Part shown: positions 31,601-45,230 of the stretch, one piece after another
Numbering within the stretch: the stretch's first letter is position 1
How the letters are laid out: the number at the start of each line of letters is the position of its first letter
Source: Ascidia mentula
Lineage: Eukaryota > Chordata > Ascidiacea > Phlebobranchia > Ascidiidae
Assembly (NCBI GenBank): GCA_947561715.1
Contig: OX387203.1
Span: 1,860,001-1,924,000, forward strand
Length of the DNA: 64,000 nt
Reading direction: 5' to 3'
The notes under the pieces: generated by a model
What the model was told of the DNA's origin: nothing
The model's input: only the letters and a program-made list of their open reading frames with translations
Databases searched by the model: none
Position numbers and translations under genes: made by a program

Positions 31601-34600
31601 CTGTTTGATATCAAATGGTCTTCACTGGGTAATATTTATTGTGAACAGTTGTCGGTAGATTTGTCGTCCTTACAACTGTGCATGAGTGTTGAGCCGTTTC
31701 ATGCAAAATGGTCGCACTTAATATTTATTGTGAACAGTTTTTGATAGAAAACACAAAACATCCATTCTGTTTTCGACATCGTATATCTAAGTGTAGCATA
31801 ATGGGAAAAAATAGTGCATGCACTTCCCCACTATCTACCCATTAAAATGATGATAGCTTAAACCGTCGTAATTTCAGCAGATTATCGTATCACCGAAATA
31901 AAATAGAACAAACCTCAAAATCACTTATAAACAAAAGAGCCAATATTGATAATTGTGCTGCGAACTGTTCACAATGTTTTTGACCCATCAGTCTACCTTG
32001 CTATAGTTATGCTGCAAGACTGTCATAAGCTGCACTGATGAAACCCGGTCAAAGTGTTCCTGTGTGTAAAAGGCGCAATAATATTCATTGTAAGGTGCAG
32101 ACAGGTTGCACTGATGAGACTTCGAAACAGCGTGTACACCTGTCTGCAGCTCTCTCTGTCTGAAGTGTTGCACTGTTACCAAATAACTGTAAATCCACCA
32201 TCCCTTTCGTTAGATTGACATGGCAGACTTTGAGGAAATGTTCAAAACGCGAGCACAGGACACCGAAGCCGACCGACAGCGACTCCAGAAACTCGCGGAG
32301 TCTCAACAAAGGAGGGGACAGTCCCTCATTGACGTCAACCGCGCCAGGAATCTTGGTGAGATGACGTTCCATGTTACGCTTTGATGACTTAATGCAGCCG
32401 AACACTTACGCACTGTACCTTAATCCCAATAAACGCAAAATGTGACATATAAGTGTGTGAAGTATCGTTTTATTTAATATATAATTTCCACACCATTATT
32501 AACAAACAAATTTCCCGCATTTTTTTCCAGCCATCACACTCCGCAAGATCGGACTGAACACAGACGACATTTGCAGATCCGTGTACAGTTACGACCTCAA
32601 GTCTTTACCTCTGGAATACGTTGAGATGCTCCCACGTTTTATACCAAACGAGGGGGAATTGAAGGCGTTCAAAAATTACGAACGTTCTGGCAAATCTTTT
32701 GACGATCTGGCGTCTGAGGATAAATTCATGTGGCTGGTGAATATTTAGTTTTAGAAAACAAACGACACTTAAATACTTCTTTGTATTCAAAGTGAGCACC
32801 TGCTTTTTATGCTCTACTACCTTTAATAGTAGAGCATAAAAAGTAACGCATGCCTCCATAGAGTACTAGCCAGGCTACATTTTGGTGCTGGAGTTAAATA
32901 CCTAATGGGTTAATGCGTGCTAAAGTTACTGTCCCAAAAAAGTTGGAAACGATAGTCATGCTTTCTGGAAAATTATATCAATAAACAAAAGCTGCTAATT
33001 GGACATTTCCAAAAACCCAAACGCACGTATTTTTTGAAAGTTATCTTTGTATAAATTTTGCATCGTATATTACTCAAGTTGTAACGGTACGATAATTGTA
33101 ACAGTGAAAATTTTTCTCCACAACAAAACGCAACAAGATTATTTTGCTTTTCAGTTCGGTCGTGTTGAAAGACTCCAACAGCGACTTAACATTATGATTT
33201 TCATCGGCAACTTTCCCGATACTTCGCTGTCAATCACGCCGCAAATCGCGTCCGTAATTGCGGCGTCCATGTCCATTAAATCGTCGGGCATGCTCAAGAA
33301 AGTCTTGGAAGTTATCCTGGCGTTCGGAAATTACATGAACAGTGCCAAGCGTGGTGCCGTCTATGGTTTTAAACTGCAAAGCTTGGACGCTGTAAGTTAC
33401 ACGCAATAGTAGAAAATTTGTTAGTTTTACGTCATATTTTGACGTCACAACATCTAAATGTGTGTTTACAGCTGGTGGATACAAAATCGACGGACAAGCG
33501 TCAAACTTTGTTGCATTACATTGTCAACGTGATTCAAAATTATTACCCAGAAGTCTCAAAATTCTACAATGAATTGCGATATGTGGACAGAGCAAGTAAA
33601 GGTACAGTAGGAAGTAATTAAGTTGCTGCCTCGTCATGAGAAAATATGTCTTCTTTTGGACGTCATTTAATGTCTGATACAATGCACTTTTTTAATAATT
33701 TATACAAAACCCTGTTGAGCAATAATTTAATTACGAGTAACGATCCTGGTGTTCCAAAGAAAATTCGTGTCAGGCGATTAATCTGATTATCGTAAACACA
33801 ATCTCGACTCGAAATATCAAAACCAACTGAAATCATTCAAATGGAATAAGACATGGATGTGAATTTCTATCACTAAAATGTTTTCGTTTATTGATCATAT
33901 CCTTGATAAATTTTCCGAAAAATCATTCAGTTTGTGAAAAAATTCATGCAATTCTTCTAAGCTGGGTAATATTATTGACAACTTTGTTTAGTTTCATTGG
34001 AAAACATATTGGCTGATGTGAACGGAATCAAAAAGGGGATCCACCTCGTTCAGAACGAATACGAAACCCACCAACATCCAGTGTTAAAAGATTTTATCGC
34101 GGCATCCACGGACAAAGCGGCCAAGGTAAAAAAAAGTGTCAACTTTACGTTGCAACATTAACGTAGCCAAAACGAGAAAAAAGGGCACATTGCAAACGTA
34201 TGGAAAAAATGTTTCCAGATAATGCAAGACGCACAGACAGCCCAGGAAGCCTACAAGAACGTTGTCGAGTACTTCGGGGAGTCCCCTAAGTCGATGCCGC
34301 CCGAGACCTTTTTCCCAATGGTTGATCGATTCATAAAAGCTTTCCAGAAGGCAGAGAAGGACATGGAGGAATGGAAACTCGCCGACGTAAGTCCACGTTT
34401 GCTTTGCCCGGGTTAGTCGCGACGTCACTGCAACGTAACAACGCTGTTTATGACGTCACACAGGAGAAGCGCGCCGAAAAGGAGCGACGGGCGTTGGAGC
34501 AGCAGGAGGAGAAGGAGCTCCGGCGCAGGATGAAGGAGGAGATGAGGAACGGGGAACAGAAGTTGATCAGCGAACTACGGAACAAACAGAGGAAGGATAG

Positions 34601-39840: not shown

Positions 39841-40162
39841 GTATATTCGCAATGCTGACATAGCGGACAGATGTTGTACTGCAGTAAAAATATATGTACT
39901 TTTTTATTCTAAAATGTTGCTGTGCAATCAAAGTTGTGCAAACGGCAGGCGGCAAAATATCCTCTTGTGGAGTTTCCAGGCTCTCAGTCAGTGGTTTCAT
40001 ATCTTAAGAAAAAAAAACACAATGTTGTCAACCAAATGAAATTACAGATTTATCACATCAATTGTTGAAGTAGCCAAATTTCATAAGAGACGTAAATGTA
40101 TTAACTGAACAAACTGTCAAATAAGCAACATGATTGTGCAAAAAAAGCCATAATATTGCAAA

Positions 40163-40220
40163 GCTGCAGACAGGGTGTGTACACGCACTGTTTCGACCTG
40201 TAAGGTCTCATCAGTGCATC
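40163..40220 (-). ncRNA. Hammerhead ribozyme motif, minus-strand copy
   Basis: Read on the minus strand: stem I GATGCA, core CTGATGA (RC of 40208-40214), helix II GACCT/AGGTC with a TAC loop, GAAA, stem III ACAG...CTGT, cleavage triplet GTC (C pairs to position 40169), and TGCAGC closing stem I. Stem I carries one mismatch relative to the plus copy. All conserved core bases (C3 to A9, G12-A14, A15.1-U16.1, H17) are present. Confidence 0.75.
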
Positions 40221-40544
40221 TGTTGAGTGGCACTGTGCTAGCTTTCACACTAGTCTCCACTTTGTGGTACCTTTCGGTCAACGTCGATCTGCAGGGTACC
40301 CTATACTAGGTACCGAACAACAGAGACGACGAACCACTGTGGAGCGCACTATGGCCAAACGGAACTGCTTGGTAACCGATAGTGCAAAAGGCATAAAACA
40401 CCAATGTAATATATGTGCAAAAAAAGCCATAATATTGCAAAGCTGCAGTATAGGGTACCCTGCAGATCTACGTTGACCGAAAGGTACCACAAAGTGGAGA
40501 CTAGTGTGCCTGCTAGTGTAAAAGCTAGCACAGTGCCACTCAAC

Positions 40545-40604
40545 AGCTGCACTGATGAGACCTTACAGGTCGAAACAGTGCGTGTACACACCCTGTCTGC
40601 AGCT
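40545..40604 (+). ncRNA. Hammerhead ribozyme motif, plus-strand copy
   Basis: Stem I AGCTGCA (40545-40551) pairs perfectly with TGCAGCT (40598-40604). The core CTGATGA is at 40552-40558, helix II GACCT/AGGTC with a TAC loop, GAAA at 40572-40575, stem III from ACAG (40575-40578) to CTGT (40593-40596) with an inner self-complementary GTGTACAC, and C17 at 40597, so cleavage is predicted after 40597. Every required hammerhead core base is there. The 5' and 3' ends both lie in stem I, the type I topology. Activity is predicted, not shown. Confidence 0.82.
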
Positions 40605-40732
40605 TTGCAGGCAACATGTTATTCTTGAAAAGCTGTTTCATTTTTTGGGCAAACAAAAACATGGTGCTTAGTTTGATTCTACAGATTGCTTTTGAAACTA
40701 TTTGAAAAAATTGTGCATTCCCAATTTTTTTC

Positions 40733-42994
40733 TTACTTTCCCAGTTTTTTTCTCAGCTCTTTGAGTTGTTCATTTTTCTTTCCCAACATATCTCTAAGGT
40801 TTTTATATGCAGCAGTTTCCCGAAACTTTTTATCCAATTCCTTCTCAGCCATGTCCAGTTGGTCCTGTAATATTTGCCAAAATATTCTCATCAATTTACC
40901 AAGCACGCTAAAGGATGTTAGCAACCCTCCGATTGGCAAGTTTTTGAACAATTAAGGTAAACTAAATTAGATTAGGATAGCCCAACTTCTGGTGCCTGTT
41001 ATAATTGCTTACTTGTTGCTAGATTACCAGTCTAATTTGGCCACTTATACAAATGCTATAGTTAAAGAAACATTTCAACCACCGATATTTCATAAACAAG
41101 CAATTAAACTAAATTATGGGTTAGTAACATTTATCAGCAAAATTTTGTCCTAAAGTATGGATTACATGTGAAATCAACATTTTTGTTTTATTAATATTTT
41201 AATCTCCAAGAAACATCTATTATTAAACACTGGCATGAAAAATAAATTTGCAGCCTGTGATGGCCGGTGACAAAAGAAAATTGTACCTGATGTAAAAAGT
41301 ATATAGTATCTACCTTGTACAGAATATGACATGGGGTAATAATGACTTTGCAACTAAGTTATATCGAAACCACTTTTTGTCTGCAGAAAATGTATATTGT
41401 AGTTACTTGTAATTCATTTACCTGCACTTTAAGTAGTTCGTGTTTTGTTGAAGTCAAGCTAGAAGCCAGACTTTCGTTTTCTGTTGATTTTACCTTCAAA
41501 CTGGAATCAAAATCTTTTTGCAGTTTTGAAAGTTGGTTGTCAAGCTCCATAGAAGAACCTTTGTCCTGTAAAAAAAAGAAAAAAAGTTGCTTTTAACAGT
41601 CAAGCAAAGTATCCAATACAAAAAATATCATTAGTTTTCTTTGAACAATTGCTCCGTATTTTGGAAAAAGTACAAAGTAAAGAGATCAGGTTCTCAGAAA
41701 GTAGTTATATTTTTAAGTTATATTGAATAAATTGGTGTTATGGTACACATAAGCAAAGCATATATACCATCACTGCAGCAGGTTTTGCTCCAAGACTTTT
41801 AATCTGATGAGTCAAAGCTTCGTTTTCCTCCAAACACTTTGTTACATGCTTTTCAATGGACTTGCTCCGCTCTCTTAGCTGTTCATTTTCACTTTGTAAC
41901 CGCTCAATTTCCTTTTGCAGCAATGCTACACCACCTTTTTCATTCAACGGCTCCAATTTTTGTTTCCATGACATAGGATCAGAAGATCCTCCCAAAAGAA
42001 GTTCCCTTTCTTCAAAATCAGCAATTTGATCTAGCAATTCTCTGCAGAAAACAAAAAATCCTACATGAACTTGCCAAACACTAAAACTTAGTGATTATTA
42101 TGATATTTTGTTTGTTAAAGGTGACACCATGATTACAAAAACATATAATTACATAGATTTAAATCTTTATGACGGAATAAACTTTTTTGGCTTTAAGAGT
42201 GCCAGAGTCAATTTGCAATTTCAAAATAAAATAATTTTGTTTGCATTTGATATGACACAAAGTCTTGGGTGATAATTAAAACAATTATACAGGCAATATT
42301 GTAGTCTGTAGACCTGCATACAAGTCATAACAATAAAATATTGCTTACCTATTTTCCAGTTCGGATATATCAGCTGCAAGTTTTAAATGCCACTTTTCAG
42401 CTTGTGTCATCAGTTGTCGTAGTAACAGCACACTTGTATGACTGCTGTTCAATAATTCCACTTCCATTTCACCACGCACCATACTAAGCAGTCCATCTAA
42501 CATCTCAGTCACTTCATCTTGTGTGTAAGTGTCTTCATACAATCTGTCAATTTAGCACATGAGCTGAAAAATTTAGCAAGTGAATATACAAACTCAATAA
42601 TAGGATTAAACCTTTGTAACATACTCATTAGGCATGTTTAAAAAATACTTTTACACGATTATTTTCTGTTTCTGTGACATAGTGTGCTACAAATTAGGCT
42701 ATTTCATTTGAAAGAACCCATTGCAAACCCAATAGATTGACTTTTTAACAATGAATAGCGGAAAAACATAATACACACCTGCTGTCCTTAAGATCTTGAA
42801 AGCAATGATCAACAGACTTTAAACGTTGTGCTCTTTTAAACCGACTGAATCGAATAAAATTAACAACATGTTGATGGTGGTGGTCGTTTACGCCAAGCTC
42901 CGACTACAAAAAAAACGAAATCTAGCGGTAACCGGGGTAAAATTTGATGAAAATTGTGAATTACTACTACAACAGTATCTGAAAATCTTACCAT
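40733..42994 (-). CDS. LZTFL1: Leucine zipper transcription factor-like 1 (BBSome regulator)
   Basis: Minus-strand exons 42994-42992 (ATG only), 42903-42779, 42543-42349, 42041-41768, 41565-41422 and 40864-40733 give 290 aa against 299 in human. LZTFL1 binds the BBSome and limits its entry into cilia. Seen: SELGVNDHHHQHVVNFIRF and KSVDHCFQDLKDSRL at the N-terminus, TYTQDEVTEMLDGL, TSVLLLRQLMTQAEKWHLKL, DISELENRELLDQIADFE, long coiled coils, and the closing DQLDMAEKELDKKFRETAAY with LKELRKKLGK. Each segment aligns with the human protein in order. The initiator ATG is the last three bases of its exon, directly followed by GTAAGA. Its promoter side faces the minisatellite transposon. Confidence 0.92.
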
Positions 42995-43432: not shown

Positions 43433-43469
43433 TAACCTGTACTGCGTCATCGATAGGTAACTTCATTAA

Positions 43470-44600
43470 TTGTTACGGGAATCACGCTATACCTTGCACT
43501 GTGTCCATGATAGGCAAGTTTGTTAAACGTAAGAGTACTCACGCTATACCTAGCACTGTATCCATGATAGGTAAGTTTGTTAAACGTTGGACTATAGTCA
43601 CGCTATACCTTGCACTATGTCCATGATAGGTAAGTTTGTTAAACGTTGAGGTAGTCACGCTATACCTTGCACTATGTCCATGATAGGTAAGTTTGTTAAT
43701 TGTTAGGGTAGTCACGCTATACCTTGCACTATGTCCATGATAGGTAAGTTTGTTAAACGTTAGGGTAGTCACGCTATACCTTGCACTATGTCCATGATAG
43801 GTAAGTTTGTTAATTGTTAGGGTAGTCACGCTATACCTTGCACTATGTCCATGATAGGTAAGTTTGTTAAACGTTAAGGTAGTCACGCTATACCTTGCAC
43901 TATGTCCATGATAGGTAAGTTTGTTAATTGTTAGGGTAGTCACGCTATACCTTGCACTATGTCCATGATAGGTAAGTTTGTTAAACGTTAGAGTTGTCAC
44001 GCTATACCTTGCACTATGTCCATGATAGGTAAGTTTGTTAAACGTTAAGGTAGTCACGCTATACCTTGCACTATGTCCATCATAGGTAAGTTTCTTAATT
44101 TTTAGGGTAGTCACGCTATACCTTGCACTATGTCCATGATAGGTAAGTTTGTTAATTGTTAGGGTAGTCACGCTATACCTTGCACTATGTCCATGATAGG
44201 TAAGTTTCTTAATTGTTAGGGTAGTCACGCTATACCTTGCACTATGTCCATGATAGGTAAGTTTGTTAAACGTTAGAGTAGTCACGCTATACCTTGCACT
44301 ATGTCCATGATAGGTAAGTTTCTTAATTGTTAGGGTAGTCACGCTATACCTTGCACTATGTCCATCATAGATAAGTTTCTAAATTGTTAGGGTAGTCACG
44401 CTATACCTTGCAGTATGTCCATGATAGGTAAGTTTGTTAAACTTTAAGGTAGTCACGCTATGCATTGCACTGTGTCCATCATAGGCAAGTTCGTTAATTG
44501 TTAGGGTAGTCCCGTTATACCTTGGATTGTGACGCAATAAGTAGCTTTGTTCAACGTTAGGGTAGTCACGCTATACCTTGCACTATGTCCAACATAGGTA
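43470..44600 (+). repeat. 57-bp minisatellite, left array
   Basis: About 20 copies of a 57-bp unit (GTAGTCACGCTATACCTTGC, ACTATGTCCATGATAGGTAA, GTTTGTTAAACGTTAGG read in order). Main variants are AACGTTAGG/AATTGTTAGG and small changes; the outer units are more diverged. Because 57 is a multiple of three the array is open in one minus-strand frame, but the 19-residue repeat is not a credible protein. Confidence 0.92.
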
Positions 44601-44609
44601 AGTTCGTTA

Positions 44610-45225
44610 ATTGTTCAACGTTTAACAAAGTTACCCATCACGGACATAGTGCAAGGAATAGCGTGACTACCTTAACGTTTAACAAACTTACCTATTATGG
44701 ACATAGTACAAGGTATAGCGTGACTACTCTAACGTTTAACAAACTTACCTATCATGGACATAGTGCAAGGTATAGCGTGACTACTCTAACGTTTAACAAA
44801 CTTACCTATCATGGACATAGTGCAAGGTATAGCGTGACTACTCTAACTTTTAACAAACTTGCCTATCATGGACATAGTGCAAGGTATAGCGTGACTACCT
44901 TAACGTTTAACAAACTTACCTATCATGGACATAGTGCAAGGTATAGCGTGACTACTCTAACGTTTAACAAACTTACCCATCATGGACATAGTGCAAGGTA
45001 TAGCGTGAATACTCTAACGTTTAACAAACTTACCTATCATGGATATAGTGCAAGGTATAGCGTGACTACCTTAACGTTTAACAAACTTACCTATCATGGA
45101 CATAGTGCAAGGTATAGCGTGACTACTCTAACGTTTAACAAACTTACCCATCATGGACATAGTGCAAGGTATAGCGTGACTACCTTAACGTTTAACAAAC
45201 TTACCTATCATGGACATAGTGCAAG
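44610..45225 (-). repeat. 57-bp minisatellite, right array (inverted)
   Basis: About 11 copies of the same 57-bp unit in the opposite orientation to the left array, so the element could fold into a long hairpin. Units are more uniform than in the left array. Confidence 0.92.
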
Positions 45226-45230
45226 GATAA

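What the first reader, a model, noticed from the sequence alone, without database searches (positions are those of the whole stretch)
40545..40604. Complete hammerhead ribozyme motif in a repeat
All conserved core bases line up: CTGATGA, a helix II of 5 bp, GAAA, and GTC before the predicted cleavage site at 40597/40598. Stem I (AGCTGCA/TGCAGCT) and stem III both pair. Chance assembly of this many elements is unlikely. Hammerheads are known in satellite DNAs, Penelope-like elements and retrozymes of animals; whether this Ciona family has been described I cannot tell.
Basis: partly seen in the sequence, partly recalled or inferred. Interest (0 to 1): 0.85.

Follow-up and report, generated by a model that had tools for sequence, protein, structure and literature searches.

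The report
Self-cutting RNA element hitchhiking on Penelope
The window holds one copy of a very common small jumping element of a sea squirt whose RNA is predicted to cut itself, and the way its copies are inserted suggests that it borrows the copying machinery of a larger jumping element, the Penelope type.

Summary
The hammerhead is there as described: core, 7-bp stem I, 5-bp stem II, 4-bp stem III, predicted cut 40597/40598. It is half of a larger object: window 40133-40610 is one insertion of two inverted, head-to-head arms, each with a hammerhead, flanked by the 8-bp duplication GCAACATG. The host is the ascidian Ascidia mentula, not Ciona. The core occurs 3618 times genome-wide, 0 in the reversed control, in a 291-bp unit found in tandem: a retrozyme. 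New here: its insertions carry the Penelope-like-element (PLE) signature. All 25 two-arm loci among 52 examined are head-to-head; duplications of 8 bp or more flank 27 of 52. In 23 well-kept pairs the RNA 3' ends lie at +8 to +19 or +32 to +50 past the cut, and 22 of 23 use one of each. A PLE family here shows two end classes too (9 of 11 pairs; not significant alone). Best reading: a PLE protein cuts and primes both strands and copies retrozyme RNA from both sides. Self-cleavage and circular RNA are inferred; Rfam hits are sub-threshold, and inner copy ends do not pile up at the cut.

The parts
40133..40610 (.). whole insertion: two inverted head-to-head retrozyme arms (1-2 unassigned bases at each end)
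40125..40132 (+). left target-site duplication GCAACATG
   Evidence: coordinates read
40611..40618 (+). right target-site duplication GCAACATG
   Evidence: coordinates read
40135..40447 (-). left arm, antisense on the + strand; starts at unit position u34 (long tail), runs about once round the unit, inner end at about u1, with an internal 12-nt deletion between two CTAGTGTG repeats
   Evidence: inner end and repeats read by eye (BLAST over-extends to u284)
40448..40609 (+). right arm, sense; unit u141 to u12 (short tail)
40545..40604 (+). complete type I hammerhead; predicted cut 40597/40598
40162..40221 (-). second hammerhead, minus strand; stem I only 4 bp; predicted cut 40169/40168
32028..32151 (+). 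older, decayed relatives of the same family (core and tail remnants); not part of this insertion

Best explanation
It is one genomic copy of a non-autonomous retrozyme family of Ascidia mentula (unit 291 bp, type I hammerhead). Inferred cycle: tandem copies are transcribed, the hammerhead cuts the RNA to units, which are ligated into circles (not shown). A Penelope-like RT/GIY-YIG protein supplied in trans makes a staggered cut in AT-rich DNA (short duplications, shown), primes from one or both cut strands at one of two adjacent start sites just 3' of the hammerhead (two end clusters, shown), and copies towards the RNA 5' end, often more than once round the unit. When both strands prime, the two cDNAs meet and join, giving a head-to-head pair with one short and one long tail (shown as a pattern; the enzyme is inferred).
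For: Two-arm loci are head-to-head in 25 of 25, among 52 loci. In 23 young pairs outer ends lie at u8-19 or u32-50, none between, and 22 of 23 use one of each (1 of 100,000 re-pairings as high). Duplications >= 8 bp at 27 of 52 loci, against mean 0.74 and max 4 in 200 re-pairings of flanks; flanking 20 nt 71% AT against 63% background. Arms meet within 5 bases in 16 of 19 fetched young pairs. The two arms of a locus share variants: 24 of 57 (18 loci) against a mean fraction of 0.17, 0 of 2000 re-pairings as high. In one array 10 of 11 units, over both arms, are letter-identical and one has 2 more T; 23 of 60 arms span more than one unit (one of them, L063, only across a gap). The genome holds GIY-YIG elements (121 matches, a lower bound), with hammerhead-like motifs read by eye after the endonuclease in 8 of 12 fetched loci, and in the L096 family head-to-head pairs with two end classes, 9 of 11 discordant. 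PMC11167929 (two of four parts read): the anole PLE protein cuts and extends both strands from two adjacent internal sites. PMC3846280 (passages): a 31-bp 'tail' optionally on one of two inverted pLTRs.
Against: No RNA data. Inner ends are not enriched at the cut site (2 of 60 within 3 nt, p 0.42). The PLE discordance alone is not significant (8278 of 100,000 re-pairings as high). A stricter hammerhead descriptor found none in the 12 PLE loci, nor did Rfam at E <= 0.1 in 4 of them. No PLE here shares clear sequence with the unit beyond the hammerhead region. Only 3 of 5 older pairs are discordant, and some ends lie outside the clusters (u28 in L055, u52 and u62, u1 in L033). 25 of 52 loci show no duplication of 8 bp, and a few that do are AT-simple, as in L021. 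Shared variants could reflect one source locus rather than one molecule. Loci L021-L040 were chosen among best matches to a query that is itself a pair.
Confidence: 0.8

Rival explanations
1. Same retrozyme family, but moved by another non-LTR retrotransposon (LINE-type target-primed reverse transcription) with twin priming.
For: Short duplications, 5' truncation and near-flush joins also fit LINE products (recalled); the retrozyme paper leaves LINEs open (PMC7229834, passages).
Against: Two discrete internal start clusters used one per arm, 3' of the hammerhead, and outward 3' ends in 25 of 25 two-arm loci, are PLE marks (PMC3846280, PMC11167929). The outer ends printed show no poly-A tail added to the unit. 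LINEs of this genome were not examined.
Confidence: 0.1
2. The inverted pair arises by fold-back self-priming of one cDNA, or by later rearrangement, not by two priming events.
For: The PLE literature proposes self-priming for inverted repeats with palindromic junctions (PMC3846280, passages). Arms that stop at different unit positions do not exclude it, since a fold-back with a loop would give that too.
Against: Tails differ in 22 of 23 young pairs, whereas a fold-back copy should repeat the tail of the first arm. Duplications of 8 bp or more flank 15 of 25 pairs as a whole.
Confidence: 0.08
3. The hammerhead is a dead passenger: a satellite-like or SINE-like repeat that spreads without cleavage.
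For: No end pile-up at the cut site; Rfam sub-threshold. In the anole PLE the hammerhead shows no cleavage without protein, hammerhead mutants do not change insertion in vitro, and no RNA-seq reads start or end at the cut (PMC11167929, parts 1-2 of 4).
Against: 92 of 104 sampled cores (duplicate loci included) keep stems I and III of at least 3 bp, although the C1 sample was chosen on the core alone; tandem units repeat at 291 bp.
Confidence: 0.15
4. Chance motif in an unrelated repeat.
For: No Rfam match at gathering.
Against: 0 sites in 300 shuffles with stem I >= 6; 3618 genome copies of the core against 0 in the reversed control.
Confidence: 0.01

Closest known systems
Metazoan non-LTR retrozymes (Cervera and de la Pena 2020, PMC7229834; parts 1-2 of 6 and passages seen)
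   Same: type I hammerhead, about 300-bp tandem non-coding units, GC below 50%, target-site duplications longer than 4 bp, many dispersed copies
   Different: copies are often head-to-head inverted pairs with two tail classes; a term search of that paper's main text gives 0 for 'inverted' and 0 for 'tail' (its supplements were not seen); stem I shows no evident internal loop 1 and stem II has a 3-nt loop
Penelope-like elements, EN-containing (PMC3846280 passages; PMC11167929 parts 1-2 of 4)
   Same: head-to-head arrangement, tail on one arm, two RT start sites 3' of a hammerhead, short duplications (8-10 bp in the passages seen), AT-rich targets
   Different: the unit encodes no RT or endonuclease and is 291 nt (the PLE array has a 2870-bp period); the hammerhead has a long stem III instead of the minimal one read in the PLE copies
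RAGATH-1 hammerhead (RF03152; that it is PLE-associated is recalled; Lunse et al. 2017 was seen only as a citation in PMC8490949)
   Same: highest bit score among Rfam matches near the site
   Different: 28.3 bits against a gathering score of 56.3
Plant LTR retrozymes (PMC4918200, search listing only)
   Same: hammerhead repeat spread as a non-autonomous retroelement
   Different: those have type III hammerheads and LTR features, as described in PMC7229834

Membership tests
Hammerhead ribozyme type I | conserved core and three stems, stem I open | tested here: met
Hammerhead ribozyme type I | covariance-model score at gathering | tested here: not met
   (sub-threshold); the genome search (0 matches) was uninformative: 68 of 30005 candidates were scored and no control genome rang
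Hammerhead ribozyme type I | self-cleavage | not testable with these tools
   needs transcription in vitro
Metazoan retrozyme | 150-450 bp tandem unit with a type I hammerhead | tested here: met
   10 units of 291 bp and one of 293 bp in one array
Metazoan retrozyme | GC below 50%, non-coding | tested here: met
   GC 0.478; longest stop-free run 96 aa over three tandem units, six frames
Metazoan retrozyme | target-site duplications longer than 4 bp, when present | tested here: met
   27 of 52 loci with >= 8 bp
Metazoan retrozyme | canonical loop 1-loop 2 contacts | tested here: inconclusive
   no evident internal loop in stem I, 3-nt loop 2 (by eye); no 3D test
Metazoan retrozyme | linear and circular unit-length RNA | not testable with these tools
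   no RNA data; circular fold of one unit -93.1 kcal/mol, z -3.1 against 100 shuffles
Penelope-like element (as a member) | encodes RT and GIY-YIG | tested here: not met
   no reading frame of that size in the 291-bp unit
PLE insertion pathway (works like) | head-to-head arms, tail on one arm, short duplications | tested here: met

The most novel reading that the evidence does not exclude
In each double-primed insertion the two start sites at the two sides of one small RNA hairpin (about u9-u43) are used once each, one by each protomer of a PLE RT dimer on the same circular retrozyme RNA, so that a 291-nt RNA circle is the complete substrate for concerted two-strand priming; this would be the general PLE integration rule.
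Probability: 0.4. Interest if true: 0.8.

Novelty: new variant of a known kind. Interest (0 to 1): 0.62.

Why it matters
Animal retrozymes are abundant, but what moves them is only proposed: PLEs were named a strong candidate from shared hammerheads, tandem copies and co-existence (PMC7229834, passage). Here the insertion scars themselves point to PLE enzymes, and the one-of-each use of two start sites turns the PLE 'tail' into a testable rule for how both strands are primed. A 291-nt non-coding template would be a handy substrate for in vitro work.

Tried and rejected
Rfam gave nothing at gathering over the window and nothing at E <= 0.1 in 4 of the 12 PLE loci. The genome-wide RF00008 search was uninformative. 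A strict hammerhead descriptor found none in the 12 PLE loci; the PLE motifs were then found with a looser string and read by eye: the bare string is in 10 of 12 loci, of which L092 and L093 look spurious and L089 pairs poorly in stem I. Run-off at the ribozyme cut as the source of 5' ends: suggested by the window's left arm, not borne out as a rule (2 of 60). A link between tail class and arm length: looked at by eye in the tables, no trend seen. Sequence kinship between the unit and PLE tails: best hit 44 nt at 75%, E 0.047, over the hammerhead. PLE families L087 and L091 could not show tail classes, since nearly all matches stop where the query copy itself ends; they show minus-then-plus neighbours, and one plus-then-minus neighbour (C73:14145878+/14146284-). 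IMG/VR scan for the core: 0. Clavelina as host: considered, dropped for Ascidia mentula.

Rows dropped before counts; 9 of 61 loci as segmental duplicates, judged from shared flanks or identical match tables (L026, L048, L049, L054, L056, L058, L061, L062, L074). L001-L020 and L041-L045 cover loci fetched again with wider flanks, except L008 and L010, which are further duplicates of L025. One search counts include duplicate loci. L073 (right end unresolved) and two neighbours whose left end lies outside the tail zone or the query (C71:12789146, C2:18363166) were left out; its fetched single-arm list covers 18 of the 27 single-arm loci. PLE table: loci with the same ends and similar spacing, taken as duplicates without looking at flanks (C52:16037, C70:222, C1:10212, C1:10218; each discordant), the query's own pair (C52:16704) and C69:7929 (truncated) were left out; C72:15015821 (367/355) counts as not discordant. 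The one concordant young pair is L085 (32/42); its right end is probably over-extended by BLAST. Ends are BLAST ends, good to a few bases. The numbers were copied by hand from the tables.

Full report
Check of the observation. The hammerhead at 40545-40604 is exact as described. A descriptor search finds it as the only site in the window with stem I of 5 bp or more, and the minus-strand site 40214-40170 as the only other with stem I of 4; 300 dinucleotide shuffles give 0 sites with stem I >= 6 and 1 with stem I >= 4. Rfam gives no gathering-level match in the window and sub-threshold RAGATH-1 and Hammerhead_3 scores locally.

Surroundings. The region holds three inverted-repeat pairs, with arms of 97, 70 and 13 nt. 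Read against the unit, 40135-40447 is an antisense arm from u34 once round the unit to about u1, and 40448-40609 is a sense arm from u141 to u12 (u1 is the first base after the predicted cut; the inner end of the left arm is read by eye). GCAACATG stands at 40125-40132 and 40611-40618, so I take the whole as one insertion. The left arm lacks 12 nt between two CTAGTGTG repeats (read). The insertion lies in an intron of a minus-strand gene: three tested fragments match PF15294, a family I recall as LZTFL1, and joining a donor at about 40736 to an acceptor at about 40003 gives the frame ...KKLGKYETTD-stop (splice sites read by eye, no transcript). The left-arm hammerhead, with a 4-bp stem I, is thus in the sense of the gene.

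Host. The window is part of a 195.8-Mb assembly whose mitochondrial COX1 contig is 19,461 bp. COX1 has glycine where AGA/AGG is read with the ascidian code and serine with codes 5 and 9; that these are conserved glycines is recalled. Contigs of 27.92, 19.88, 23.17, 22.72 and 21.17 Mb and the 19.46-kb mitochondrion match Ascidia mentula kaAscMent1, published as 197.0 Mb (PMC11109543, abstract and passages).

Family. The core with up to 3 mismatches occurs 3618 times, 0 in the reversed control. An array on C70 has 8 minus-strand then 5 plus-strand cores; of its 11 core-to-core units 10 are letter-identical at 291 bp and one has 293 bp, by eye 2 more T. Of 104 cores in 61 sampled stretches, duplicate loci included, 92 have stems I and III of at least 3 bp, in 50 distinct sequences. 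The C1 stretches were chosen on an exact core, so core conservation there is by choice; stems I and III are not.

Insertion signature. 52 non-duplicate loci were examined (the window, 19 chosen among the best matches, 32 from C1). 25 have two arms (12 of the 32 C1 loci), and all 25 are minus-then-plus, that is with RNA 3' ends outward. 27 of 52 have duplications of 8 bp or more near the ends (15 of 25 two-arm, 12 of 27 one-arm), against a mean of 0.74 and a maximum of 4 in 200 re-pairings; the other 25 show none. Flanking 20 nt are 71% AT against 63% background. Outer ends of 23 young pairs (19 fetched, 4 from the hit table) fall at 8-19 or 32-50 with none between, and 22 of 23 pairs have one of each (mean on re-pairing 11.7; 1 of 100,000 as high); 3 of 5 older pairs do, which is no more than re-pairing gives (66,716 of 100,000). 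Listed single arms use either class, with strays at 52 and 62. Of the 19 fetched young pairs 16 have arms that meet within 5 bases. Arms of one locus share substitutions more than re-paired arms (24 of 57 over 18 loci, against a mean fraction of 0.17 and a maximum of 0.30, 0 of 2000). A hairpin is predicted at about u9-u43, the region of the two end clusters (one fold, no covariation test).

The likely partner. GIY-YIG searches give 121 matches, a lower bound. Fragments of two were tested: both match PF01541, one also RVT_1 below its cut-off. Eight of 12 fetched loci carry a hammerhead-like motif near the endonuclease (by eye; a strict descriptor and Rfam found none). For the L096 family, ends fall mostly at query 323-337 or 365-375, that is about +60 and +100 past its own predicted cut (cut position). 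One end, 355, lies between, and a few truncated matches lie elsewhere. 9 of 11 counted pairs have one of each class, one has two short ends and one is ambiguous; by re-pairing this alone is not significant (8278 of 100,000).

Mechanism. The published anole PLE protein cleaves and extends both strands of a target from two adjacent internal start sites that lie 3' of its hammerhead, in AT-rich DNA, with no difference seen between the strands (PMC11167929, first two of four parts). Rotifer PLEs show head-to-head arms with a 31-bp tail on one of them (PMC3846280, passages). The retrozyme insertions show these marks. I therefore infer trans-mobilisation by a PLE enzyme with priming on both strands. 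Shown here as patterns in DNA: duplications, orientation, two end classes, one of each per young pair, a common template or source for both arms, copying beyond one unit (23 of 60 arms, one of them doubtful). Inferred: cleavage, circularisation, the identity of the enzyme, and two reverse transcriptases on one RNA. Against a role of cleavage in making template ends: inner ends are not concentrated at the cut site (2 of 60; 3 if the window arm, read by eye, is added). Fold-back of one cDNA is not excluded by the junctions; the unequal tails speak against it.

Novelty. The retrozyme paper proposes PLEs as a strong candidate from co-existence, hammerhead type and tandem copies (PMC7229834, parts 1-2 of 6 and passages). 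A tail on one of two inverted pLTRs is known for PLEs (PMC3846280). In the searches made (listings, with passages of a few papers) I found no paper reporting PLE-type insertion scars for retrozymes or a retrozyme in an ascidian. Didemnum vexillum has 9 type I hammerhead loci listed without context (PMC8704543, one passage). Two key older papers were not held, so absence in print is not established.

Noticed in passing
window 32028-32151: Decayed older relatives of the same family, with a core whose stem II is partly lost and the 'TGCAGCTCTC' tail of the older subfamily.
   Followed up: partly
window 43452-45226: A 57-bp tandem repeat in two blocks of opposite orientation (20.3 and 10.7 copies) meeting near 44610-44617, a large inverted satellite.
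   Followed up: no
window about 40003-42551, minus strand: Exons of a PF15294 leucine-zipper gene (recalled as LZTFL1); the insertion sits in its last intron as read by eye, with one hammerhead in gene sense.
   Followed up: partly
L021 (C70:2550300-2556000): A very young inverted tandem array, 8 plus 5 cores; 10 of 11 units letter-identical, one 2 bases longer, as expected of slippage during one copying event.
   Followed up: partly
G000:C67:6133719-6147185: A PLE array of 2870-bp period in the same head-to-head arrangement, two minus then three plus.
   Followed up: partly
L033 and G000:C67:11619769: Two copies whose RNA 3' end lies at the predicted cut site instead of in a tail cluster, possibly copied from cleaved linear RNA.
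   Followed up: no
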